From: Dirofilaria immitis
Taxonomy: Eukaryota; Nematoda; Chromadorea; Rhabditida; Onchocercidae
Assembly: GCA_024305405.1 (NCBI GenBank)
Contig: JAKNDB010000070.1
Span: 490,001-554,000, forward strand
DNA length: 64,000 nucleotides
Direction: 5' to 3'
Shown: piece by piece, positions 11,929 to 46,354 of the stretch
Layout: each line of letters opens with the position of its first letter
How positions within the stretch are numbered: the first letter of the stretch is position 1
Notes under the pieces: model-generated
Seen by the model: the letters and a program-made list of their open reading frames with translations, nothing else
Databases searched by the model: none
What the model was told of the DNA's origin: nothing
Made by a program: the position numbers and the translations under genes

Positions 11929-14900
11929 ATGCTTGATTATAAAGTATTCTGCAAAAGAATGCCCAAATGTGTAAGTATTTTTCGGCTGCTCATTATAAAA
12001 AAATTTCAAGATTTTACGGCTTATCATCATAGCAAAGTTTTAGAATTTTACATCCAATATGAAAAAAAGATGGGAAATGTTAGTTGATAAAAAAATTAGT
12101 TCAAAGGTTAAAAAAGAAAAAGAAAAATTGATAAATAACTTTCTTGAATCTATTGAAGTTTGAATAAGTATCAAATTTTTGACGATGATAAATGAAAGAT
12201 ATAAATTTTTTTTCGCATATTATCATAACAAAATATTGATTGATATGATCTTAAAATGTTTTACATAAAAATTTCATCATTTATTCCTTATCATTTTATC
12301 ATCTTATTTCTTCTGATAAACAATCATTGTTATATTTTATTAAATAATATATACAGAAAAATAGAAATATTAGACCATAAATTAGCTATATATTCAAAAT
12401 TAATCAATTGCAGGAATTGAACGTACGTTGGGAATCTTGCATTAGAAAATCAATGTTTCGGATACTTGAAGAACATCGATTACTTACAGGTGAACCTGAT
12501 TTAACAGTTGAACAGCGAAAATTACTTTGGGCATATGGTGAGCCAAGAAATATGAAAGAGTAGGTGTTTATCTATTATTGAAATTCAAATAAATTCAGGT
12601 TTAAATATTTCTACCACATTATTTAACATAACATTCTTGTAAGAAGCTTGGCCAATAAGCAACGAAATCAGCCATAATATGAAAATATGGCTAATAATGA
12701 CAATCAATATTTGAAAGGAAAGAAATGGCCAGGATACGTAATTTAGAAAAGGCAGACTTGAAATGATTTTTATTCGAGATTGGGGGACAACATTCTTCAG
12801 CTTACTTTTCTTTTTTTTCAAGGATTCAAAAAATGAGCCTTAAGGCGCTTTTGCATTAATGCAGCATAAATCATCATTTCAAGCATTGTTTACTCTGTTA
12901 ATTATTTGTTTAGTTCTAATTAACAAATTATCATATCACTGATTGTAAATTTAATTTTTAATCAGGGCATTACGAACAATGTCGGTAGTACGTGACCTGG
13001 TTCGATTTCAGGAGGATGTATTTATGGTATACAACTTATTTTTATTCTCGTGATTTCCTCGCTTCATCACAAATTAATATCATTAATTAAAATAAAATTT
13101 GAAAGAAAGGAGAGAGAGGAGAGAGAGAGAGAGAGAAATCTAGTAAATTTTAATTAAATTAAGTAAGACTGACATCTTCAAAAAGACAAAAATATTTTAT
13201 TTTAAAATTTGTAAATTTTTAGATAACAAAAGATATCATTGATCGTTATCATGCTGATAATGTTGTCTATTTGGAATTACGTGTGAAGCCATGTGAAAGC
13301 AAAGAATTATCACCAGAAACATTTTTGAGAAAAGTTATCCAAGCGATTATATCATCAAAAGAATTATATCCAAATATGATTATTAAAGTATTAATAACTG
13401 TCGAATTGCAACAGGATATAGAAGAAGTTAGACGAGTATTTGATTTAGTTATGATACTTGGTAAGAAATTTATCAAATATCTTTTTTTTTTCCTTTTTGT
13501 TATCACTTTATTATCAACTAAATTAATAATTTTTTAAATTCTTTCATAATTTAATAAGATTTCTTACTTCTTTTTTTGCTTAATTTACATAATTTTAGTA
13601 TATTGAAAAATTTTTATCATTTAATCTTATCATTAAGAAAATATAAAAAAGATAAATTATTTTAAAAATTTGTTATCATATTTTTTTCCTAAAATAATTC
13701 ATTCAATATTATTTCATATCGAGATTATAATCATTACATTATATAGAAGTTTTAATTAAGCCAAGAAGACAATAAACTTTAAGGCTGGATGATCCAAAAA
13801 AACTTTTTAAATGATAATTGATAAGCTAAATGAAATATTTCTGATCTTTTAAAAAGCTTAAAATAGCTAGAATTTGATCCAATTAAGATAAAAAGCATTT
13901 TAATAAGTGATCGATCGATCGATCGATTATATCTAATGGCATTGTTATCATTACTCCGTTGATAAATATCGATCAATACCCAAGATATCGATCAATTAAA
14001 CTTTCCTTTTCTATTTCGATTATTTTTCAGTAATCTCTTCTAAATTGCATTACAGGAAAGACACGGAAATCTAAAAATTTACCTGATGGTGATATAATAG
14101 ATGGTATTGAAATAGTTGGTAATCTAAATGAAGTTAATGTTCCGCAATTACAAAAAATGATTGATGAAGTTCGAGAGGAATCTGAATTAAGAATAGTTTT
14201 TAATCTAGCTCAGGTTATTCATATCATATTATTTAAAATATTTTTTCATACATAATCAAAATTTAATATTAATAATTAATTACATTGATGATTTTATTAA
14301 ATATAAAAATTTCATAAACAATTTATCTTTCCTTCATTATTCAATGAAATGAAATGAAGAAGTGAATGGGAAATTAATTATCAATACGAATAATATTTTC
14401 AATTTAAATATTTGTATTTAAATTCCAATAAAATATATTAATGCTATCCTTTTCCGATATTATAACTTTTTTTTTGATTTTTAAATTGAATTTTCCAAAT
14501 AGAAAATTATAAAATTTTTAATTTCTAATTCTTAATGTTATAAGCATTACTGATTTTATGTAAATTTTTAAAAATATATTAAAGTATTTTAATACATCGA
14601 ATAATCGGATGATGATGATGATCATCATGATCATGTCTTTTTTTATATCGACGAATCGGATCAACATATCTTTCGATATATCGAAAAATCGGATGATCAT
14701 ATATTAAATCTTAATGATTAATTGATATTCTTATATCAATGATAAGGAAAAATTTGAATTTCTTTCTTCTACTCAAAAATCGCATCATATCTTTCGATAT
14801 ATCGAAAAATCGAATGATCATATATTTCATACCTCAATGATTAATTGATATTCTTATATCAGTGATAAGGAAAAATTTGAATTTTTTTCTTCTATTCAAT

Positions 14901-15839
14901 GATCTTATATAAATAATTGAAATTCTTTTAATCAAAATATATGAAAATATCATATCAAATAAATGAATTATTTTAGGTTAACGATGTTCATCAACTACAC
15001 GACATTTTACTATTTCATCCCGATCGATTAAGTAATGCAGAAATTTTGAGTAATTTGAATCAAGATCAAAATGAAATACATAAACATGTATTTACCGATC
15101 GTTTATTATCAACAAAATTACCCATTGGTATGTAATTCGAGAAAAATTATTCTCGAAAGATTTTTGATAATTAAAAATCCTCTACAATTAGCCTTTAAAA
15201 ATATTTAAAGGAAGAAATGATTAAACAAATGATTAGTATAAATTTTAAATGTATCAAATTTTTTTTTAAACGATTGATAATAAATTTATTTTTGTTATAG
15301 AATTTTGTTATACCGCTAATCGTTTGAATTGTCCTCGAGGTGTGAAACCAACTTGGTTAAATCATTTTTATCATTTCTTTTCAATGAAATATCCAATAAT
15401 TATTTCTGTAAGTTTTTTTTTAACTTTATTTACAACTTACAACTTTTTGTTTTTTCAATATTGATTATTGTTAAAATAAACTGATAAAGGGTCAAATTAT
15501 TTTATATTTTATTATCAAAATATGAGCTAAATTTAATGATTTAATAAATGAGATAGTTATCTGGTATTATAAAAGTTTTTGCAGACAGGATATGGTGAAT
15601 TATTGGGTTGTAGCTTATCAGATGAATATTATCATTTAGCACTTGGGATGAATTTAAATCCAAACGATGTCTTCAAATTATCATTAATTGCGTCATTTAT
15701 AACTGAAAAAACGCCACGTAATGATAGACGTCAATTTTTCCCATTTGCTCAACAATATAATGCATTTGCGAGTTGGTATAAATTAGAGAATTCAAATGAA
15801 TGGAAATTTCAAATTCTTCATAATTGTCAATATTTTTAA
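11929..15839 (+). CDS. ADAL: Adenosine deaminase-like protein (ADAL family), catalytic residues replaced
   Basis: Eight exons: 11929-11970, 12414-12559, 12966-13026, 13223-13460, 14056-14213, 14977-15127, 15301-15407, 15585-15839. All junctions are GT-AG and all phases agree, giving 385 residues, close to the usual ADAL length (about 355). Active ADAL removes the 6-substituent from N6-methyl-AMP and related nucleotides in a zinc TIM barrel. Family landmarks align end to end: KCELNVRWESCI (family KVELHAHLNGSI), ITKDIID then VYLELR, IEIVGN, HPDRLSNAEIL (family LPDRIGHGTFL), LPIEFCYTANR, and IISTGYGELLG then SLSDEY (family VICTDDKGVF then HLSQEY). The zinc and catalytic positions are all changed: HxH to N17/R19, H to N212, E to Q215, GHG His to N235, DD to G303/Y304. 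The frame is fully open, so this reads as a pseudoenzyme and not a decaying gene. Its retained role is unknown; nucleotide binding or scaffolding are guesses. Confidence 0.9.
14660..14905. repeat. Intronic two-copy duplication of about 120 bp
   Basis: Inside ADAL intron 5, CATATCTTTCGATATATCGA and its flank, through ATGATTAATTGATATTCTTA to AAGGAAAAATTTGAATTT, occur twice about 120 bp apart with a few differences. TCGATATATCGA is itself a palindrome. Confidence 0.75.
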
Positions 15840-15992
15840 GTCGACCTTTGATCCTCGTCGCAAACAACGTCGTCGTCGTATCATTGATCGTTTATATCAT
15901 TGAAATTATAATATATTAATTTTTTTAATTTTCAAAACTTTTTTCTTTTTGAATTTTCTTTATTTTTGTTTTGTAAACTTATTAAAAATATG

Positions 15993-18565: not shown

Positions 18566-21500
18566 ATGAATCCATCAGCATTTTCCGGAAATTTTCTATT
18601 CAGTAGTCCGACAAGTACAAAAAACAAAAGCAGTACTTGTCATTTCATTGATATATTCGACTTTATCTTCGTTGCACATCCTGATTCTGGACGTATCGAA
18701 GGCAAAGAAAATGATCGAGTTTTTATTTCAACAGTCCTCAAAATGAATCAGTGGAAAAGCAGGTGCACAATTTATTATTGCTTGAAAATTTCTCAAGAAA
18801 TTTTTTTAAGTTTCTTTTTATTTGATTCTTATCAGTAGTACTGAGAAACTCCGTTCTTGAAATTAAATATGCGCATTTTCAAACTAATTCATACTAAGTG
18901 ATCAGAGATATAACGATAATTATGTACCGTGATTTTATAGACGCAGATAACAGGTTTTGCCGAAGCAGTTTTTAATTTCACTGAAAATTTCACAGATAAA
19001 AAGGATGAGTCAGAATTTCAATATCGTTATGTGAATACTTCCAAACAATTGCATGTTTATATTCAGATGGAACAAAGAAAATTTATTATGGGCACCGGTA
19101 TAAACATGTATGTATTAATTATTTTCTATTTTAATTTATCATTCCAATTATTTCGATGTTCAATTTTTATGCTTTATTAGAACTATCGTTTTTATTAAAT
19201 ATTGAAAGTTTTGAATTTTTGTTTCCATTATGTTTCTGATAGATGTTGGAATGTGGTTTTATTCAGTTTTTAATTATAAAAGTCATTACTTTCAAATCAA
19301 ATGTTTCTTTTCTCATATTATTTGTTCATTTTATGATATTGACTGAGTGACAGACAGTTTTGAATTTCTTTGAGCATATAGTCTTATTTAATATAATATT
19401 GACATTCAAACTTATTTCAAAAATAGTTTAATCATTTTCTTCTGCAAATATTTTTATTAAACTATTGAATTAGTATTAACTCGCTAAAGTAAACTTCTTT
19501 TTCAAATATCCTCAAATGGAAAAAATTTTATATGACTAAATCAGGAATTATTGTGGTTTTTGATGTGAACAATTTGGCTGAAATTATTAGTCATGTATTT
19601 TTTTGAAAACAAAACTTTTCAGAATCCGTTTAGTAAATTTTTATTTTCCCGTCAAAATACTTGTAGAATCTTTTTGTTCATTATCTATATTGAGAAGCGA
19701 AGGAACTTCAGGCTTTGCATTTCATAAAATTATTTAAACTGTTATATAATAGAAAAAAGCCAGTTTTAACAATGGCTTGTTAAAATTATCCCATGTTAAG
19801 TATATGAACATTTGACTGGCAATCATTTGCTGTTTTATTTTAAAGACAAGTTTTAGAGATCAAAACAAAAAATAATATATAAAAATCGATTAAAAATAGT
19901 CTATAAAAGTTAAAAAAGACTGTCAAAATTATATTCTTATTGTAAGTTAATGTTTCAGCTTTTAATTAAAGGAAAATTGAATTTGAATTGTTATTTTTGC
20001 AATTGTCTTTTTTAATGGAGTGGCGTTTTAGAGAGCTTTGCACCAATGAGGATTATATTCTACGAGGATCGGCCATCAAAGCAGTGTTAATAATGGCTTA
20101 CAAAATGTTTCGTCTATTTTTGGTCCTTTCTCTCGACTTGTGACCAATAATTCTGCACAATTGAAGGATCGTTTAGAGTACTTTTTTCACGCTACCTCCC
20201 ACAACTTCGTCTTCATCGCGTAAGTTAAATCCTGAAATATATTGCTGTTAGAATCAGTTAACCGATTGTAGATTAGTTGAACTATATTATATGGAAAGAT
20301 AAAAGGAAAGAATTAGTATTAAAAAGAAAATTTGATGATTTTTTTGTACTCTTTGAAGCATGATGTCATTTAATAATTTTGAATTCCACTTATATCTTTC
20401 AAAATATTATGTATCAGTTTGCAGATGCCTTTACTGGATGTATTTTGTGGTGTAGATTATCTGTCATTAGATAGTGTAAATTACTTGCGAATTGAGAATC
20501 TTTTGGATGATTTGGTGGAATCTTTTCCTCAAATTTCGAGAACTATATTCTTTTATCAGGAACACCTGATAACCTATAATGTTTCCAAAACCGATTTACC
20601 TGTGCTTTGTCGGTATCTCACTCAGCATCTTCTTAGCAGATCAATGAAAGAAGAACTGCAACCTGAGAAATATAGCAGGTTTGGTTTTACCTTTTATCAT
20701 TCGTCTTTCAGTTGAGGTATCAATTTTTTCTTATCTGATAGGAAGGGAAAATTATCTTCGAATATTGGATTTTTGTTAACCATCTTTCTTGCCAAGTCAC
20801 TGTCAAGGATAATTTTGAGTATGCTAATCATTTTTTAGATTTGAAAACTTTCCACACTTCAAGCTTAGAATTGGGTAGATTCATTGAATAGATTCGTTAT
20901 AACTATTTAATCAGTATCGCTATTATACAAACATTAAAGTCAGTCTTATTAAAATGATTTTCAGCTTAGTGTCTTATCTTACTGTTCGTATACATCTCGT
21001 ATTTCCAGAAAGGACACAGTACATCGGGGAAATTTTTGACGGGTTTAGCGATATCGGCTAAAAATTCTTCAATCAACGAAAAATATGATGTAAAGTTGCC
21101 AGTTGTTTATTTATGTGATGAAAATAGTGCAGAAAAGCTTGTACCTTATGAAATGGTAATTTTTATTATTGTAGAAGGGATGATAATTTGACTTTTCGCT
21201 GAGAATTTCGCTGACACTCTTTCTATCTTTTCTGTATTCTATCATTGTTGAACGACATGAAGCATCAAATTTTATGTTAACTTTTATTCAGCAAATTTCT
21301 TTTATCAATTATTTTGTCCAGCTTTATCTTTTATACTTCTTTATATTTGTCTGTACGCATCTACTATATTTTACTATTATATTTACATCATTAATTGAAC
21401 ATTATACTAAACAAAAGAGATCTTGTGCTTTCATTCACTTTTCCATGGCTATAGCTCAGTAACTTCAATTTTTTTTTTTTTAAATTCAGATCGTTTATCG

Positions 21501-22192
21501 TGCTTTGAACGCTACAGTTTGTATGTTCGTCCAGAAAAGTATTGATGCTCAGTTTTGCAACAATTAGATGAATATCTTGATCCAGAATTAACTGCGCTAG
21601 CGTCTCTGATTGCTGAATCATATGGTGTTTTGAACGATATACCGAGAAAGGAAAGCGAATTCCACTTTGTGTATTTCAATCCGGAAAGTATGAGTCTTAA
21701 GACGAGTCTGACCGAAAATATTGATTCTAGTCGCAACTCAAATCTTCCTTCTCTACCATCTTCAGTGTACAAGTAAGTTGAATATTTTTTGAAAAAATAG
21801 AGTAAAACTGGAAAGAAAAGAATACTACGACATTTTTATCATTGTTTCTTATTTCAAAAGACAAAACAAAGATTACTCCGTATCTTAAAGCTATTATTCT
21901 TTTCTTAGTGAGTTTTCAAGATTTTTAAATTTATAAAATTGTATTTACGGTTCCGATAACTGTTTTTATTTTCTAGATCAGCTTGTGACATATTTGATGA
22001 ATTCTTAGAAAACAATGATTTTTGCGAAACATCAATTAAGTTAGATACCGATTGGTGGCTTACCATAAAAAAGTAAACAAGCGATTTTTAATGCTCATAT
22101 TACGAAGTACTACACTTACTGCACCAGCTGAAGTGCACCAGTACACTAATGATATTATCAAAATCAACTTCGATAGTGTATTTCTATTTTAA
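18566..22192 (+). CDS. ccz-1: Vacuolar fusion protein CCZ1 homologue (frame interrupted at homopolymers)
   Basis: CCZ1 pairs with MON1 to form the guanine-nucleotide exchange factor that activates Rab7 on late endosomes and lysosomes. Exons: 18566-18762, 18941-19107, 20032-20219, 20418-20678, 21009-21155, 21490-21772, 21977-22192. Conserved stretches are recognisable throughout: ITGFAEAVFNFT, YKMFRLF then SRLVTNNSAQLKDRLEYFFH, LLDVFCGVDYLSLDSVNYL, KFLTG, YRALNATVCMFV, DPELTALAS, FHFVYFNPESMSL, and the C-terminal block reaching FDSVFLF. The frame needs one additional base at five places: T5 at 18720-18724, T5 at 20117-20121, the G4A3T5 run at 21026-21037, T4 at 21553-21556 and A6 at 22067-22072. 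Allowing these, the protein is about 487 residues, matching the family (human about 480). All lesions sit in homopolymers and splice sites are intact, so assembly error is likelier than a pseudogene. Confidence 0.88.
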
Positions 22193-23213: not shown

Positions 23214-25672
23214 TTATCGTAATTTTATAATTCCGGCTTCTCGTAGTTTCATAAGTTTTCTTAAAATATCTGGATTTTGGAGATGCTCACGTACTGCTCC
23301 AGGATCCTGACTCATTTGTTCTAATAGCAGCCGCATACCCGGATCCCTGTAAGATCGATATGGTTTGAACGGAATTTTAGAAATATAACCAATAGCTAAA
23401 AATCAAATAACAGTACAATCTTTTATCTTTTAAGAAAAATTTGAAGGAAACAAACTTCAGAATTTCCTGTACTTCTGGATCCCGTAATGCACGCTCTCGT
23501 GCAGCATCTGGATCTTCATTATTGTTGCTCATTGCATTCATCAAACCATCACGAGCTTCCTGATTATTATTATCTAGTGCAAGAGCTGCTTCATATGCGC
23601 TCTGCGCCTTACCAAATTCTTTAAGTGCGATTAATGCAGCACCTTTCCTGATATAGGCTTTTACTGAAAAAAGAAAAACATTACATAAAAGTTCTCATAT
23701 AATAAAAATTATGCTCAGAAATTTTTATGAGTAGGTTAATGGACTCGCATAATAAACTCACTAAAGGTAGGATCTTTTTGATGCATGTGTCGCAGTCTTC
23801 AAGTGCTCGCTGAAATTCCATCAATTTTGTGTAACAAGCTGCTCTGTTTGAATAAAGGACAGGATTTTCAGGATCTCGCTTCACGGCTTCGTTATAATGT
23901 TTCATAGCTTCTGGATATTTACCTTAAAAAACTTTTGAAGTATAAGGTAAAAAGCATCTGAAATATTTATTCTATACTTATTTTCGTAATCGACTTCTTA
24001 TATTATCACCAAGATGCATGTCACAATGAATCTTACCGATAAGAAAAGTCATAATTAAATAATAAAATTTAAAACAAAATACAGCATTTCAAGATACTTA
24101 TTAAAGAATGACTGGAACAGTTAACAGAATTGAATTTAATCTATTTACAAATGATGCAATAATGCTGTAAAACCCAGAGAAATCTAACCTCGCTTGAAAA
24201 GTTCATTGCCCTTAATTTTCTCTTTTTCTGCTATTTCTGGATCTATGTAAGCTAATCTTTCTTTCTCAGCTAATTCTTTCTCCAGCACTTTCTTTTTCTT
24301 CACCAATTCCTGAAATTTACGTAATCATAAATTGTGTCTCCTTCGTTATGAAATTCTCGTTATTAAAAATTAATCACAAAATTTTCAAGGCAAATATCAT
24401 TAATTTAATTCGATGTCTGGTCAAACAATTTTAGAAATATACTGCATTAATTAATTGGGTAATTATAAAATAAAGGATAATAGTAAAATAAAAAACCAAG
24501 TAAAGAGGTACGGAAATAATTCTTACCGGATCTCTATGTTCGGATAAAGACTTATCGAAAATGTAAGTGCTTCCTTCAACTGATCCAATTTCAGATAAGC
24601 ATTTCCTATCCGAGAGAAAGCCCTATAAAATCGCTTTAATATGCTTGTTAAAAATGAATACTAGGAACACTTTTATATTTATAAATGCCTTGATGAAAGG
24701 AAGAGGATCTCGGTTTACCGTAATCAAATTCTTTTTTAAGACAATTTACTTTGCAATATGCGTATAATCCGCTCGCTGTTCACGTCCAATGTCAACTGCT
24801 TTCTTGCACAATTCGATGCATTCATCATACTTTTTCTGCTCGAAAAGCACCGCTACAACGGATGCTTTTAATAGATTATCATCGAATAAATTACAAAAAA
24901 ATGTAGGCAATTAAATAATAGGGAAAGAGGTATTTATCACACTTTCAACGGAGTTTATTCCTTTTACCTTTGGATCAATGGTTTACCATGGTTTCTAAAT
25001 GTTGGAGATAATTACTCACCGCACTGCCATGTTCTACCATTAAGCTTTAAGCATTTTTTTATAACGTAGCAAATTTAAATAACATCACATCAATACAAGA
25101 TGACTGAGCGTTAATCATGTAAGGTGTTTCTACACTATATGGCACCACTCCACCAAAAATTTTCACAAAACCATCACTCCTATTAATTGAATCGAAATCA
25201 CTTTAGTTAAATTAACTTTAATATCTATTATTTATATAAAACAGATTCAAACTAAGAGAAAAACCGCAATCTGAAAATTTCACAGATGTAAATGGACAGG
25301 CAAAGCTATATATGTTCTGATCGATATACTAGTAAGTCATCAAGCAAATAATGGAACAATCAAACGTAAAATTTGAGAGATTATTTTTGAAAAAGTTGTG
25401 AACAAAAATCCCTACCAGCTTTATTGTTATAGAAAACAATATTCGTTGGATCAAGCTCGATAGCTTTCTCGTAATGCTTTACTGCTTCGTCAAAATTTCG
25501 TTGTTTATAGGCTTCATTTCCGAGCTCTTTTTCTTTCAAAGCCTACAATATACGTCTAAACAGAAGAAATCCATTTTTTCCTTTTCTCCTTCTCTTTTAT
25601 CAAACAAAGAAAAATTTATTTCAAAATTACTACCATAATATAATAAATAGAAAGGAGATATACCTCTGCCAT
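23214..25672 (-). CDS. sti-1: STI-1 (Hsp70/Hsp90 co-chaperone, STIP1/Hop homologue)
   Basis: Eight exons in transcription order: 25672-25664, 25542-25416, 24852-24750, 24622-24527, 24309-24189, 23922-23762, 23663-23456, 23346-23214. The protein starts [16 protein letters not shown] and ends with the DP2/STI1 domain ([27 protein letters not shown]). Between them lie two three-TPR blocks: TPR2A at about residues 4-115, with [15 protein letters not shown] and AFSRIGNAY, and TPR2B at about 135-255, with [18 protein letters not shown] and [10 protein letters not shown]. These carry the Lys/Asn/Arg positions typical of the EEVD-binding clamp. Length is about 319 residues; the N-terminal TPR1-DP1 half of vertebrate Hop is absent, as in Caenorhabditis elegans STI-1. 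Two exons each lack one base: the + strand T5 at 23775-23779 and A4 at 24558-24561. With these restored, every splice phase agrees, which argues for sequence error. Confidence 0.93.
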
Positions 25673-32743: not shown

Positions 32744-35700
32744 ATGAAGCGATATAAGCGAGTTTTGCTATGCTATGGTTTTGTACAGTTTATGGTGGCA
32801 TTATACATGAGATGGTTACGGAAAAATCCAAGTCAATACATTTGGATACATCGAAGAGGTCAACAAATTTCTCTCAGAGGAAAACGCTGTCGTTATGGCA
32901 GTCATAGGTTTCTATCTTTTCTCCTGTAAATGCAACTAAAAGTTTCTCTCTTTATTGTTTCTCTTCTTACCAGTGAAAGGAATCAAGGGCTTTTGTCATT
33001 CCGTCATTTGAAAAAATTTTTAAGTTGGTTCTTCATAAATAGGTTGGAAACTAATGCTCTTCCTTCTTAGGACAAAATCCATATTTACGTTCGAATTATT
33101 AAATTCTGATATAAGCTTAGAATTTCAGATTTACTAATGGCCTCTGAAATTGTATTAATTGTATTCCTCAAGAATATTTTGTAATTCGTTGTATCACTGC
33201 GTATTTTATTGATAGTATAACTTCCATGTTGAATATAATTGCATAGAAATTTTCCAACTTATAAATTTCTAATCATGATCAAATTAGCAATTAATGATTA
33301 TATAATTCCAATTATAAGTTTTATCTCTAGTTCCAAATCTTAGAAGTAATTTCTCTGTTTTCATTTAAACCTGATATGGAATGTTCATATCTGATTTAGT
33401 CCAGAATATTAACATTTTTAAATGACAATATTTTCAGTTATGGGACAACAATATGGATTAGTTGTCGCTTTCTAATTATAAATGATATCCAGAATGTGAA
33501 AAACTGGTTGTAAAGGATCGTAACAGCCATGCTCGAAAAGTAACTTTATATCCTGTCAAAATTTATCGTATATTATGCGACGAACCTGTTGTATTTATTG
33601 ATGAGCTTGATACATTCAATCTTACCAACAGAGGACTTCATCTTGAGGATGCATTAATTGAAGTATTTTTTTCCGATATTTATATACACATTTTAATTAT
33701 TTAATTCCGAGTATCATTAAGACACGGCCAGTTAGCACAGCACTTCTGGAGTCATATGTTTCTGGAAAAAGTTTTTCATCTCATCAATTTTGTTTAATTT
33801 GACCTTTCAACTTTGTAATCATTTTATACATTTTTGTTTGATAGTATGAATTATGTGACCTTATTCGATTTTGACAATTATATTCGTAAGTGTTGAGTAA
33901 TTTTATTAATTATGAAATTCATTTTTGATTGCATTTCTGCTACATTTGTAACAGTTTGGACTATTATTTGATGAAGATTGATAAGAGTTCCAATTGTTCT
34001 TAGAATTATTTCGTATAAGACCGTACTGTGTTATAAATAAGTTTGCCAAATAGAATATATTCTTTCCACTTATTTCTATAATTATAAAAAAACTTTCCTC
34101 AATCTTTCAAAACAGTCATTGTAAATATTAAATAAGCTAAACATAGCTGGCATTGGATTATTTTATATATCGTGAAAGTACAAATAGAATTTTTCATTTT
34201 CATAGCAGAACATTGTTTCGCTCTTCATATTTTTTACAAGCCAGTGAGAAATTTATTTTTAGAGTTTTTGTTCTTTTGATATTACTGATGAGGGAGAAGC
34301 ATGTATTTCATGTGGTGTTCATATTGCCCTTATTATTACATCTTTTACGATCGATTATCTGATTATTCTGACGAACTTCGAGAATATTTTCGAATACCAA
34401 GGTCTATATTTTTGGTTATTTTTTATCTTTTTCCTCATTGGTTACATGTTATCAATTCCCATAAATAAAATACTATAGTATAGTTATTGTATCATGAATC
34501 TATTCAAGATTTAAATTCTCAGATTACAAGATCTCATTGAACAACTGTTATTATTTCCAAAGTTTTTTTATTTATAGCTGCAATGACTTTTCTGTTTTGA
34601 GCTTTTAATTTGTTGTATGCTAGATGGACATATATCTCTCCATCATATAAACATATAATCTCATGAAAATTATACATTATTAATACAGACAGTTTTGATA
34701 AGATTTAGATTTCATAAGTTTGTAAATTCTACGGTTGGTATAACTTTTATGAAAATATATTTTTTTAGACTGGTTTCGGTGGGAGATATCGTAGCTATTC
34801 CTTGGCATAAACCATGGAACAGAAAAGTGAAAGAAATATTTTTCAAGGTAATGAATAATACTTTCTAGAATAGACTTTGAATCAGTTTTTTGAGAACGAT
34901 CAATGAATATTGCTTCAGTGAATAAATTATACTGCCTATCTGTTTCAAGTTGACTCTCTTTAAGATTTTTATGATATCTTTATGAAAATATTATATTTTT
35001 AGATACTTCGTTTTGAAGATTCAGAGGGATTATTAGAAGCGATTGTTGACTCACAAAATACAACATTATATCAGGTTTTTTGATATTCAGTTTGTTATGC
35101 ATGAAGAAGAAAATAATTTCATCTTATTCATTTTTAATTATATTCTTAAGGTATCTTTTCTGCTTAATTATTGCGATTTAGTTTTCTTTTAGCAAAATAT
35201 TAGTCGCAACTTTATATATATGTGGCTTTAATTTTTCCTTTCTGATTTTGCTATTCTTTGTTACTGTAAATTTTTTAAATTTATTTTTAAGATTCTCTTT
35301 TTAAAAACGAACTTGACATTTTATTTTCAATCATTTCCCACTGAACGAAAGAAGTTGGCTTCGTTTTAAATTACTTTGGATAACACTATTTTTATTTTGT
35401 AGGATGGAGAGATTTACGACAAAATCCCTTACAGTGATATCACGTGTTACGTCCCCGAAAAATTCGTACAAATAGCGCAACGAATTTCTTCTTTGGTCAC
35501 AGCTAATTGTGGGATGGAAACATCCTTGTCAACTCTGGTTATACTTCTCAGCGGTTCACCAGGTTCTGGAAAAAAGTTATTCTTAAAGCACTTATCTTCT
35601 TTGACACATCTCGATATTCACTTTTCCAACTGCTTTGATATTTGGAGTGATGCATCTGGAACTTACGAAACTAATATTCGCAGTGCTTTTGAAAAGGTTT

Positions 35701-38700
35701 TTTTCTGGTTATGTTATAGAAGATATTCCATCTCCTACTTTTTTATTTAGTACGATTTTAAATTTGAACTGACAATAAGAATATTAATTTACTTAATTTT
35801 CAATTTTTTGTGTTTTGAAATATCAATTATTATAGCTTCAACGAATACTTTTTCATTGTTGGCTCTTCTGAATGCAGATTTACTTGGCTACAATTCAGAT
35901 GGTGCTAAGCAAGGTGCTTTATTTATTTTTAATAACAAATTTTACTAATTTTCTCTAATTTTTAATTGTATTAAGTATTATATAAAATGAAATATTCTAA
36001 GCAGCGTGCTTCTTGATTGCGACAATTTAATTCGAAACAACAATGAGATGATAGAAGATAATATATGCTATATTTAATTTGAGGAAATAAGTCAACGCTA
36101 GATCATTATTGCTCACCACAAAATTTTAAGTACATTATTATCTATTGGGTTAATTCTAAAATTCAATACATCATTATCTATTGGACTAATTCTAAAATTC
36201 AAGAAATAAATGGTTTTATTTTTCAAATGAAAATTGTTGAGCTTCAGACTTAAATATTCAAATCGTTGAATTAAAAGAAATGTTGCGAAAGTCGTGCTAT
36301 GAACTTTTTTCAAAAATTTTAAATTTCATTATATCAGTTTTGTGTTAATGTTTTAGTCATTTTATCCGAGTAACTAAATGATTTTCTTTTTCTTTTTGTG
36401 ATAGATAAAATTTTCAAATTGATGATTACTGAGTTTTGCAAAGCGTTTTTTACGAATATTGATGACTTTAATAATAGGCCCTATTGGTCTTGATTTTAAC
36501 ATTCATTTTTTCGAAGTTTTCAAACAGAAATCTTTTTGCAGATAGTCGAGGATTGGTATGTTTGACGAAACTTCTGAAATCTCGCATCATACCTATTATA
36601 TTTTTGGTCTGTAATTCTAACAAATTATCAACTTTACCAATATCACTACGTTCTCTAGTTCTTTATCATTTCCAAATTCCGACACTTACCGAAGATGATC
36701 GAAAATCCATAATTATGCATGAACTTGTTGAATCAAATCTTATTGATATCGCTGCTATCGGTTATCAGACAAGCGTAAGTTGTTCTCGATTCTTTTCTTC
36801 TTTGGAATTTATCATTTTGTTTGAATTTATAATTATATTATTTTAGTGTATTTCGAGTTATGTCAGTTCAAAAAATCTGAATATCAATAAATTACATGAA
36901 AATTGAAAGCTGAAAATTTTGAAACATTTAGGGATTTACTTTATCTGATTTGCATATTCTGTTATCGGATGCATCATTTCGAAAAGACGCTACAAATTCG
37001 TGAGTTTCTTTTTGTTACCATTCAAGTAACAAAGTTAATATAATCAGGATGCATACTGTTTTCGAGTATTTGAAATTTTTATAGACCGATGCTGAAAACT
37101 GAACACTTCATGTGGGCAATTGATGAGCGTAACAAGAGATTGGCTGATAAAATTGGAGCACCCACTGTAAGTTATATCAATCAATAATTTTTGTATTTGA
37201 TTGAAAAGGCTGTGGATAAATCATTTTGTGTGTAATATAATCATAACTATAATAATCTTACTGAAATTCAATTTGTTTTTTAGAAAACCGTAATGATATT
37301 CGAATCATTGATATTTAGAAGTTATTAAAAATTATGGACTGGGGTTAAGGTATTAATATCCTAATTTGCTTTCCCTAGTTTGCATTTCTTATTCCATCCA
37401 TCTTCTTCATTTCTGTACATGTTAGTCAGTGATACGTAACACTAATCATTTGTGGACAGGAATTTGAAAAGATCAATTAATACAGAAAAATTTTTGAAAA
37501 ATAAATCTCTAATTTTGAATTCTTCAAGATTTTATGATATGATGTTTTTATTTATGAGTTTAGAGCTTATTATTTTAAAATATACGATTTTTCCGTTTCA
37601 TACTTAGACAAAATTGTAGATACCAAAAGTGACATGGGACGATATTGGAGGTTTAGATGATGTTAAGCAAATTGTTATTGAAAGTCTAATTCTGAATTTG
37701 CAAGCGAAGAAGAATATGAAACGTAGTGGTGTTTTGTTATATGGTCCTCCTGGTTGTGGTAAAACACTTATTGCTAAAGGTTCTAATTTGGTTGATATGC
37801 CATTGATAGCTGTGTTATTGAGACTTGATTAAACATCATGTTACATTAGAAACTAGAACTTTTTCATGACGGAGAGCTATGAGATTAATAGTGTATTTTT
37901 ATTAGTATTGAATTGCAAAAGCTTAAATGAAAAGACAAAACAGTTTCTTTATAAATTTTTTGATGCTAGAACACTGAAGATATATATCCTTGACTGTTAT
38001 TTTGCAGCTGTCGCAAATCAATTTAAAATTACTTTTTGAGCGTGAAAGGGCCTGAACTTCTCAACAAATATGTTGGTCAGAGCGAAGCAAATGTTCGCAG
38101 AGGTAATATGTGTTTTAGTAATTTGGATTATACATACTGATGATAATATATTTGAACTGTATTATGCATTATTTTAAATACATGTTTCTGTAGTGATACA
38201 GTACTGTAGATATTTGACATTTGCTCTATCAATTTTTTTAGTTTTTGATAAAGCTCGAATGGCTGAGCCCTGTGTATTATTCTTCGATGAACTCGATTCT
38301 CTCGCTTCTAGACAGGGTCGCTGCGGTGATTCCAGTCGTGTAGTTGATAAGTATGTTTATTAATTATAATTTAAAATATCAGTCCAAATATTTAGGGTCT
38401 GTGCTCTATCTAATTTTTTCTGGCAATGTGGATGTTTTCGTTATTTGCATTATTCAATTCATACTTACTTTCAGCATTGTATCACAATTGACTACAGAAT
38501 TAGATTGCCTAGAAGACTCAAAAATCTTTATTTTGGGTGCTACAAATCGGCTTGATTTGTTGGATTCATCGCTACTGAGATCGGGAAGGTAGTCTAAAAG
38601 ACTTATATATGTTCTCTCATTATTTAGAAACTTTTCTATTTAATCATTCATTTTAGCTGCTTATTTAATTGACTCATTCTTATTATTTCTTTTTTATTCA

Positions 38701-42300: not shown

Positions 42301-42584
42301 AATAATTTAATAATTATATATATGTCATTTGCAAACATTGATATTTTTTCCGTTCTGTCAATCATGAAAAATCTCATAGAGCATACATTTCTTTATCATT
42401 AAAATCCATTATCACTATCTGATTATTATAGTTGAAATTAATATAATGCAATATTTAACTTATCCATCTGTATATTACAGTGTCATTTTAATTTATGAAA
42501 AAATGAGCCATTCGAAATGATATATTTAATTTTTACGCTTCGTTATTTTAAATCATTTACTGAAAGTTTGAAAATAAGCTCCAC
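39336..42584. other. Intergenic region downstream of prx-6
   Basis: No gene recognised apart from a possible missing last exon of prx-6 in its first kilobase. AT-rich throughout. It ends in a tandem repeat (42058-42201) next to the 18S rRNA relic. Confidence 0.6.
42058..42201. repeat. Short tandem repeat, about 33-bp units, 4-5 copies
   Basis: Units of the form TTTTGATGATGAATATATGA followed by TGATAATCA repeat with variants (TTTTGGTGATGA, ATAATAATTTTG). The array lies about 380 bp upstream of the rRNA relic. Confidence 0.8.
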
Positions 42585-43492
42585 TCCTCATTATAACAGC
42601 TATAATGTACTTGATGTTGATTATCCAACTTGGATAACTGTGGCAATTCTAGAGCTAATACATGCACCAAAGCTCTGACTTTTTGAACGAGCGCATCTAT
42701 TAGATTAAAACCAATCGGAACAAATTTGATTTGATCCGTTAATTTGGTGACTCTAAATAGCTATAGCTGATCGCATGGTCTTGTACCGGCGACATATCTA
42801 TCAAGTGTCTGCCTTATCAACTTTCGATGGTAGTTTATGTGCCTACCATGGTTGTAACGGGTAACGGAGAATAAGGGTTCGACTCCGGAGAGGGAGCCTG
42901 AGAAACGGCTACCACATCCAAGGAAGGCAGCAGGCGCGCAAATTACCCAATCTCAGAATGAGGAGGTAGTGACGAAAAATAACGAGACCGTTCTCTATGA
43001 GGCCGGTTATCGGAATGGGTACAATTTAAACCTGTTAACGAGGATCTATGAGAGGGCAAGTCTGGTGCCAGCAGCCGCGGTAATTCCAGCTCTCAAAGTG
43101 TATATCGTCATTGCTGCGGTTAAAAAGCTCGTAGTTGGATCTGCGTCTTAGGACTTGGTCCATCCAAATGGATGTGAACTAAAATCCTAGACTAATATTA
43201 CAAGTTTTCTAATGTTACCTTAATTGGATGCATATAGTAGCTAGTAAGCACCACCAGGAGTGTAGCCTGCGGCTTAATTTGACTCAACACAGGAAAACTC
43301 ACTTGGTCTGGACACCGTGAGGATTGACAGATTGAGAGCTCTTTCATGATTCGGTGGTTGGTGGTGCATGGCCGTTCTTAGTGGCGCATGGTCGTTCTTA
43401 GTTAGTGAAGTGATTTATCTGGTTTATTCCGTAACAAGCGAGATTCTAGCCTATTAAATAGTTACTGGATAATTTTGTCCATACAACTTCTC
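42585..43492 (+). rRNA. Degenerate, internally deleted 18S rRNA copy (relic)
   Basis: Runs of small-subunit rRNA are unmistakable: CTGTGGCAATTCTAGAGCTA, GGAGAGGGAGCCTGAGAAAC, AAGGAAGGCAGCAGGCGCGC, GGTGCCAGCAGCCGCGGTAA, then CACCACCAGGAGTGTAGCCT and CTAGCCTATTAAATAGTTAC. The 5' end and roughly the last fifth are missing. A central part (from the V4 region to just before the CACCACCAGGAGT helix, several hundred bases) is deleted, with the join at about 43205-43245. A 20-bp segment is duplicated in tandem (43362-43381 and 43382-43401). Many point changes hit conserved positions, such as GGAGTGTAGCC for GGAGTGGAGCC. No 5.8S or 28S follows. This is a dead nuclear copy, not a working rRNA gene. The sequence resembles nematode, particularly spirurid, 18S. 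Confidence 0.93.
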
Positions 43493-46354
43493 GTATTTGT
43501 AGCAAGTTTTAAAATAAACTATCGCATTATTCAAGTAATCTTAAAATCAGATTAAAATTCTCGTGCTATCGTTACTTATCATAATGCTACATCAAAATCT
43601 AATCTGATATTATTGAACGAATCAATAATATTACATTAACCTTACGATATTTATTTTTTCCATTGATCAACTTGGGGATTGAATATGAAGTAAAATTATG
43701 CTTCAAGATGCCTTATCGCCTAATTCAAATTAATTTGAATGATTTGATTATATTTTAAAATATCGACAAAAATACTAATAACCTTATTATAACGAGAAAA
43801 TACATGCTATTTATTTATTTATTTTTCGCACATTTTAGGTTACTGTTTCGAGAATCTTCTCCACTTTCGAGAATTTTTTTTCACACATTGTCGTAATATT
43901 TCAAAACTGGAAAAATTTTATTTCATTAAATTGAAGAGTACTTGATATCTTGAAATTAATGGACGAACTTTTTATTATCATCGAATTGAAATAAATTTTG
44001 ATGATCAAAAAGATTGCATTCAGTTATAAAATAAGTAATTTATCAAGAAAAAAAGATACTAAAAATGAAAATTAAGCGATTTTCTTAAATTACTTCATGT
44101 AATCCTTCAAATTCTTTCTTTTGCCTTTCATAATTATCATTATTATTCTTATCAAATGGTCAAGAATTTCTTTAATTTCCGAATGAAATTTCAAATATTT
44201 GATTTTAGAGCAAATAATAATATTGTATATGCCATTATTTTTTTTAGAATTTTATTGATAATTCAATATAAAATATAATTTTTTTAATTTCCCAACAAAT
44301 AATATTATGCCCTGATAATCTTTTCTTTTGACCTAAATTTTATAGTCAATAATATTTTTGCATCTCTCAAAATTTTGAAGAATTTTTCTTTCATCCTATT
44401 GCTTTTTCGCATAAATTATTAGGTCATAATTTTGACCTTTCAATATCAATTCCAATAAATACGATGCTGACAAATTTTCGATTCATATTAAGATCCATTT
44501 TTCATTATTATATTTTAAAATTTATCATTTGTAGTCCTATTAGCACTGATAGTTGTTAGCTCAAATTTTCATTTTTTTGTTTGAATGATCTGTTAATAAT
44601 TTATTCTCATTTGATATTTGATTTTTCAATATAATGAAGTTTTTGAGGACAGATTAGTCTCTTCCGTTAATCTTATCATCGTTCATATCATTATGTCAAG
44701 AAGTTAAAATATTGATAAGAAACAAAGAATATTTTATTATTCAAGGCATTGTTAGAACATCAGTTTTTTTCTGTGATATAGAAAATTATGAGAAGATATT
44801 CTTATCATTGTCGTTCTTTTTTTATTTTCTATTATCTTATATATTTATAGCTTAATATTTTTCTATTTCTCGAATTAAAATTTATTCTTCTTCTTCTATT
44901 AAAAAAATTTTGATTTAATTTCCCTCGAGAATACCTATAATCTTATTCCTCTCGAAAAGTAAGATATAACTGAAAGTCGACTTCATTAAAGAGTTTATTA
45001 AAATAGAAAGATTGTGTGATATCAGCTACTATTCTTCATTGCTATATTTAATATAAGAAGGAAGAATAATTTTAATTCGAGAATTAGGAAAATATTAAAC
45101 TATAAATATATAAAATAAAAAAAACGATAATGACAAGTTTGATTTTTTAATTATTTCTATTTTTTTTATCAAAGAATTGATAATTATTTATTATTTTAAA
45201 TTTTTATTATTCAAAATTCTTTTTGTAATAACAAAATTCTATGCTTTCAATTTTCTTATCAAACAATTCTGTTTGATATATCAGTGTAATATCTTTCAAA
45301 TGTTATTAATTTTATTTGGTAATTTAAAATTAAATAATTATTTGGAATTTTAAATAGGAATTCTTTTCTAAAGAATATATCAACAAATTTGTTTATTATT
45401 GTTTTTCTATTGTTTTTGTTTTTTTTCTTTTAAACTAAAACGTTTATTAAAATTTATTAAATAATGAAACGAATATTTAATGCTTGAAATTTATTCATTT
45501 ATTTTATTATCACAAAGAATCATACAATGTATCGTTTAATTTTTAATGCAAAATTATTTTCTTTTAAAATTCGAACTGTTTAAATTATTCAGAATTATCA
45601 GTATTCTGTACCCACAACTGTAATTATTTTCGTTTAAAATTCGAACTGTTTAGATTTAGACGATTCAGAATCATCGTTATTCTGTATTCATAATTATTGA
45701 AAATATTTTTAAAAATATACAACAAAATTATTTTACAATATTTAATGAAAATAATGAATGGAATGGTTTATATTCAAACCTTTATTTGTTACTTTTGTTT
45801 GCGATTATAATATTTTAGAATTCTTCCGAGATGATAATTTTTAAACATTGAAATTATCTGCATGATATAAAAATAGATTAGCAAGATTATTCATTCGATT
45901 ATCATTCTTTTATCCACCTATCGTATATTCTATTTTCTTTTTTCTTAACATCTGATCTGATAAACTATTGCTGATCGGATTGGCAGCTATTAATCCATCA
46001 TTAATACGAGAAATTTTTGTCGTTCATTTTGAAAGTCTCTGCAAAGCAATGATTAATTATGATTAATATTAGATACTATCATACTAAATTATCTGAATAA
46101 ACAAATTATATGAGATAAAAAAAAAAAAAGCGGCCCATTGTTTTCCTCAAATAATAAAGGAAAATATATTCGTTCCCCGTTGAAAACAATTTTAATCAAT
46201 TTTGGCAACGGATGAAGATTCCTTCATGGTCATTTTTCTATGTATGTAAATATACATGCCATATCATGCTGAAATATATTTATTAAAACGAGTTTTCTTT
46301 TTTTTATTGTTTTTCTTTCGTCTATATTTAACTGCTACAGCATTGATATTATTT

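What the first reader, a model, noticed from the sequence alone, without database searches (positions are those of the whole stretch)
11929..15839. Intact ADAL-family protein with every catalytic and zinc-binding residue replaced
The eight-exon model is free of frameshifts and aligns with ADAL from end to end, yet the HxH pair is N17/R19, the LHLSE histidine and glutamate are N212/Q215, the GHG histidine is N235 and the DD pair is G303/Y304. Several are single-base changes (His to Asn, Glu to Gln, Asp to Tyr). Losing all active-site residues while keeping the fold, length and splice structure suggests selection for a non-catalytic function, such as nucleotide sensing, partner regulation or RNA/ribosome association. 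Such a dead ADAL is, to my knowledge, undescribed in nematodes.
Basis: partly seen in the sequence, partly recalled or inferred. Interest (0 to 1): 0.82.

Follow-up and report, generated by a model that had tools for sequence, protein, structure and literature searches.

The report
Dead deaminase paralogue conserved in filariae
Heartworm and related worms carry a second copy of a nucleotide-clearing enzyme (ADAL) that has lost its active-site residues but has been kept, with new conserved features, so it probably does a different, non-enzymatic job.

Summary
A Dirofilaria immitis contig carries an eight-exon, stop-free ADAL-like gene with N17/R19, N212/Q215, N235 and G303/Y304 in place of the zinc and catalytic residues. 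It is a family: 12 protein records from ten species, filariae plus Thelazia, share the replacements wherever they cover the sites. The same genome has an ADAL with intact motifs on another contig; seven of seven introns match in place and phase, so the dead gene arose by DNA-level duplication. The tree puts the duplication within Spiruromorpha, after the ascarid split, with a long stem (2.26 changes per column) and short filarial tips. Of 144 columns invariant in six dead sequences, 84 differ from all three filarial active ones. Orthologues carry a conserved basic C-terminal tail that filarial active ADAL lacks; in this assembly the frame leaves it. AlphaFold keeps the ADAL barrel. Two phosphate contacts kept in every active row examined (Ser106, Thr107) are replaced, which weakens nucleotide sensing. 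I favour a non-catalytic binding or scaffold protein; the partner is unknown. No dN/dS or expression data were available.

The parts
11929..11970 (+). Exon 1 (MLDYKVFCKRMPKC); resembles orthologue N-termini
12414..12559 (+). Exon 2: N17 and R19 in place of the HxH zinc pair; family-conserved RKLLWAYGEPR segment
12966..13026 (+). Exon 3
13223..13460 (+). Exon 4; VKP in place of the ADAL STP phosphate contacts
14056..14213 (+). Exon 5; ends in FNLAQ (N212, Q215) in place of HLAE
14977..15127 (+). Exon 6; DRLSNAE (N235) in place of the GH(G/A) catalytic histidine
15301..15407 (+). Exon 7; skipped in several public gene models of orthologues
15585..15839 (+). Exon 8; TGY (G303, Y304) in place of TDD, and stop of the present frame
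15840..15903 (+). Remnant of, or mis-assembled, conserved basic C-terminal tail of the family, lying in two other frames past the stop
   Evidence: translation of three frames; orthologue tails

Best explanation
The gene is a non-deaminase paralogue of ADAL (N6-methyl-AMP deaminase) kept in filariae and Thelazia. SHOWN by sequence: an ADAL gene was duplicated with its introns in an ancestor within Spiruromorpha; one copy kept the active site; the other replaced the zinc and catalytic residues and two phosphate contacts, passed through a fast phase, has a basic C-terminal tail in the orthologues that cover that end, and then settled into a constrained form. PREDICTED: it still folds as the ADAL barrel. 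INFERRED: it works as a binding or scaffold protein. The rebuilt barrel, especially the RKLLWAYGEPR lid-like segment and the residues around the old active site, binds a protein or RNA partner, and the arginine-rich tail brings it to nucleic acid or the nucleus, while the intact paralogue keeps the metabolic job.
Against: No partner, localisation, expression or activity is shown. The tail that suggests nucleic-acid or nuclear targeting is out of frame in this very assembly. Constraint is measured on proteins only, and orthologue models come from gene prediction, which can hide stops. The dead copy changes faster than the active one (Dirofilaria-Brugia 247 of 385 identical against 271 of 352). 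The pocket mouth is not more conserved than the rest (0.657 against 0.637, permutation P 0.34). The AlphaFold alignment contained active ADALs, which pulls the model towards that fold.
Confidence: 0.53

Rival explanations
1. Regulatory partner (prozyme type): the dead copy pairs with active ADAL or another purine enzyme and changes its activity.
For: The active paralogue is present in the same genome; both kinds are also recorded for Loa loa (P0014 or P0015 and P0132) and for the genus Brugia (active in B. malayi, dead in a cluster named after B. pahangi). Prozyme-type pairs are known in parasites (recalled).
Against: Human ADAL was purified as a monomer (PMC11349198, passages and section 10 seen). 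The two D. immitis copies are only 30% identical, and the tail is an addition not explained by pairing.
Confidence: 0.15
2. Ligand sensor: the barrel binds a nucleotide or another small molecule without turning it over.
For: Six of seven old active-site positions stay fixed as N, R, N, N, G, Y in six filarial sequences, as a rebuilt pocket might. The loss of two of the four listed phosphate contacts (Asn28, His74) is shared with active filarial ADAL, so it does not count against binding.
Against: Ser106 is Val in 8 of 8 dead rows and Thr107 is Lys in 6 of 8 (Asn and Ile in the others), while both are kept in 10 of 10 active rows (contacts). Pocket mouth not conserved above average.
Confidence: 0.17
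3. New catalytic activity with a different, metal-free or otherwise rebuilt active site.
For: Fixed residues at the old active site, fast stem then constraint.
Against: I recognised no new catalytic-looking site; no search for one was made and nothing was tested.
Confidence: 0.08
4. Slowly decaying gene without function; the intact frame in other species is partly an effect of gene prediction.
For: The D. immitis frame leaves the conserved tail. Public models of Thelazia, Litomosoides, Loa and O. ochengi lack parts. Roughly twice the branch length of the active copy for Dirofilaria-Brugia, about 0.56 against 0.27 (my sums, open forks neglected, Brugia species differ).
Against: 0 of 90 simulated neutral sequences at matched identity were stop-free; 149 of 372 columns are invariant in six species against 119 (s.d. 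8) of 385 in the simulation. Dead clade shared from Thelazia to Dirofilaria. With Loa the two copies change at more similar rates: Dirofilaria-Loa 112 of 175 dead, 180 of 249 active; Brugia-Loa 140 of 199 and 190 of 249.
Confidence: 0.07

Closest known systems
ADAL / MAPDA, N6-methyl-AMP deaminase (human 8qch, Arabidopsis 6ijm and 6ijn; D. immitis paralogue on C26)
   Different: Zinc and catalytic residues and the Ser106/Thr107 phosphate contacts replaced; extra conserved basic C-terminal tail in orthologues
ADA1-type adenosine deaminase (D. immitis C59 gene)
   Same: Pfam A_deaminase
   Different: Separate gene with VELHLHLDGAIR, AERIGHG and LSTDD motifs; the ADA1 label is mine from these motifs
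Pseudoenzyme regulators of parasites such as trypanosomatid prozymes (recalled, not tested)
   Same: Dead paralogue kept beside an active one
   Different: No sign of pairing was looked for or seen; human ADAL is a monomer

Membership tests
ADAL / MAPDA enzyme | A_deaminase domain homology | tested here: met
   29.7 bits over a cut-off of 27; 9 of 9 members of A2 match at E up to 0.01
ADAL / MAPDA enzyme | HxH, third His and Asp zinc ligands | tested here: not met
   N17, R19, N212, G303
ADAL / MAPDA enzyme | Catalytic Glu, His and second Asp | tested here: not met
   Q/K215, N235, Y304
ADAL / MAPDA enzyme | Phosphate contacts Ser106 and Thr107 (human numbering, PMC11349198) | tested here: not met
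   Val in 8 of 8 and Lys/Asn/Ile in 8 of 8 covered dead rows; Ser and Thr in 10 of 10 active rows
ADAL / MAPDA enzyme | Phosphate contacts Asn28 and His74 (human numbering) | tested here: inconclusive
   Glu and Arg in the window protein, but active filarial ADAL also lacks them (Ser/Thr, Gln) and two dead rows have His at the His74 column
ADAL / MAPDA enzyme | Deamination of N6-methyl-AMP | not testable with these tools
   needs purified protein
Pseudoenzyme derived from ADAL | Common origin with an active enzyme | tested here: met
   shared introns, tree 99/98 with spirurid active ADAL; activity of the C26 copy is inferred from its motifs
Pseudoenzyme derived from ADAL | Fold retained | tested here: met
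Pseudoenzyme derived from ADAL | Kept by selection after loss of activity | tested here: inconclusive
   protein-level constraint and no stops; dN/dS not possible without orthologue DNA
Prozyme-type regulator | Physical pairing with the active paralogue | not testable with these tools
   no interaction data

The most novel reading that the evidence does not exclude
A spirurid-specific nuclear or RNA-bound factor built from an ADAL barrel: the dead enzyme gained an arginine-rich tail and a new binding face and has become a conserved, perhaps essential, filarial protein.
Probability: 0.25. Interest if true: 0.72.

Novelty: new variant of a known kind. Interest (0 to 1): 0.52.

Why it matters
ADAL clears N6-methyl-AMP, so a retained dead copy is a clean case of an enzyme fold taken over for another task. 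Its burst-then-constraint history, the intact paralogue in the same genome and the new tail make the change directly testable. It is a lineage-specific protein of important parasites; the public records seen are called hypothetical, unnamed or, as in P0003, 'Adenosine/AMP deaminase family protein', a name that suggests an activity it probably lacks.

Tried and rejected
Alternative exon with canonical motifs: a whole-genome search with PF00962 gave no match at this locus, and one with active Brugia ADAL gave two, both dead exons of this gene. Retrocopy: rejected, all seven introns kept. Tandem duplicate: rejected, the active copy is on C26 and the dead one on C11. A second dead copy: none found with P0003 (six of seven matches in this gene, the seventh in the active gene; only the best candidates are scored). 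Independent second assembly: the NCBI protein P0001 lies on a contig of the same length as C11 (1,611,725), so I take it as the same assembly; its different ends look like gene-prediction choices around the same DNA (my reading). Assembly error at the tail: suggestive only; the active gene's exon 1 in the same assembly also shows a frame change just upstream of MPKC. Timing relative to Gongylonema: sisterhood of the dead clade to filarial active ADAL without Gongylonema was not rejected (p-AU 0.118). The profile search listed no active ADAL although a single-sequence search did, so absence from that list is not evidence.

My first columns for His208 and Glu211 were one off; one search gives the right ones. 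A first count of 88 dead-specific columns included 4 with a gap in an active row; 84 stand. I had treated all four phosphate contacts as lost in the dead family only; two are also missing in active filarial ADAL, and two dead rows keep His at one, so I use two contacts, and moved the sensor rival from 0.15 to 0.17 and the main reading from 0.55 to 0.53. In the Thelazia row the letter E at column 215 comes from a model that lacks the FNLAQ exon; not counted. In the Litomosoides row the His74 column falls in a stretch of its model that does not match the family.

Rows left out: from the tree CAN_LoaC2 and PSE_Lsig (partial models) after alignment, and P0001, P0008 and P0009 before it (alternative models of species already present). 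Conservation counts used six full-length rows of the ten species. Literature: ten searches seen as listings with abstract starts; one search showed 20 of 477 hits and one search showed 12 of 520. One paper opened (PMC11349198: passages and section 10). The Arabidopsis structures are known here from titles only.

Full report
What is there. The window lies in contig C11 (490001-554000) of an 86.7 Mb assembly. The best protein match, 99% identical over 91% of the query, is Dirofilaria immitis DINM_002987, on a contig of the same length as C11. The gene has eight exons with GT-AG introns and reads 385 residues without a stop. It matches Pfam A_deaminase just above the cut-off and human ADAL over residues 7-336.

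It is a family, not a single odd gene. Two searches of the protein collection returned 12 dead records: D. immitis, two of Onchocerca flexuosa, one of O. ochengi, a Brugia cluster of 12 member sequences, Setaria digitata, two of Acanthocheilonema viteae, Cercopithifilaria johnstoni, Litomosoides sigmodontis, Thelazia callipaeda and Loa loa. In ten aligned rows, one per species, the replacement is kept wherever the row covers the site: N17 and R19 8 of 8, N212 9 of 9, N235 10 of 10, G303 9 of 9, position 304 Tyr in 8 of 9 and Phe in Thelazia, position 215 Gln in four and Lys in five. Thelazia and Gongylonema are Spiruromorpha outside Filarioidea.

The active copy is elsewhere in the same genome. 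A search with Brugia malayi ADAL (P0012) found an eight-exon gene on C26 with HAH, HLAE, GHA and TDD. All seven introns have the same position and phase as in the window gene, so the dead copy came from a DNA-level duplication and not from a reverse-transcribed copy. The copies are 30% identical in D. immitis. An ADA1-type gene lies on C59.

History. In a 26-row tree (LG+C20 mixture, IQ-TREE) the dead rows form one clade at 100/100, joined to spirurid active ADALs at 99/98 and away from Ascaris, Toxocara and Syphacia. The dead stem is 2.26 changes per column. Dead filarial tips run from 0.02 to 0.25 and Thelazia is 1.05; filarial active tips are 0.11-0.16. The order relative to Gongylonema is not settled (active clade 82/76; AU p 0.118 for the alternative). 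Identities of dead and active copies: Dirofilaria-Brugia 247 of 385 and 271 of 352; Dirofilaria-Loa 112 of 175 and 180 of 249; Brugia-Loa 140 of 199 and 190 of 249. The dead copy changes faster, by a modest factor in the crown.

Constraint. No dN/dS was possible, as no DNA of other filariae was at hand. Indirect evidence: neutral simulation of the D. immitis coding sequence with intron base composition, scaled to the observed identity, gave about 7-12 stops per sequence and no stop-free sequence in 90, and about 119 (s.d. 8) invariant columns of 385 against 149 of 372 observed. Among 347 columns with letters in nine rows, 144 are fixed in six dead sequences and 84 of these differ from all three filarial active ones. 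Six of seven old active-site columns are fixed, P 0.018. Caution: orthologue sequences are annotated models, several lack exons, and only the D. immitis DNA was seen.

Mechanism. Loss of the zinc and catalytic residues makes turnover of N6-methyl-AMP unlikely, and loss of two phosphate contacts weakens sensing of it. A kept barrel, a new conserved surface-like segment and a basic tail fit a binding or scaffold role, perhaps with nucleic acid or in the nucleus. This last step is inference. Pairing with active ADAL is possible, but human ADAL is a monomer.

Novelty. In the listings of ten full-text searches of an open-access library I saw no description of a dead ADAL in nematodes; subscription papers were not searched and two listings were capped. 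Pseudoenzymes as a class are well known (general knowledge), so this is a new variant of a known kind.

Noticed in passing
window 42468-43606 (+): Two pieces of eukaryotic 18S rRNA (RF01960). A DNA search of the own genome gave 46 matches (the window itself included) of 72-100% identity over many contigs: dispersed 18S fragments.
   Followed up: partly
window 20383-21773 (+): Open frames matching Intu longin-like domain 2 (above cut-off) and 3 (below cut-off).
   Followed up: no
window 23380-23923 (-): Open frames with TPR repeats.
   Followed up: no
window 35403-37829 (+): Open frames matching AAA ATPase, one below and one above the cut-off.
   Followed up: no
L014 1792-1848 (active ADAL, C26): The reading frame changes just upstream of MPKC relative to the Brugia N-terminus, which may be an assembly error like that suspected at the dead gene's tail.
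   Followed up: partly
orthologue records P0005, P0008, P0009, P0011, P0132: Public gene models skip exon 7; P0011 (Thelazia) also lacks the FNLAQ exon and one source names it CULLIN_2 domain-containing.
   Followed up: no
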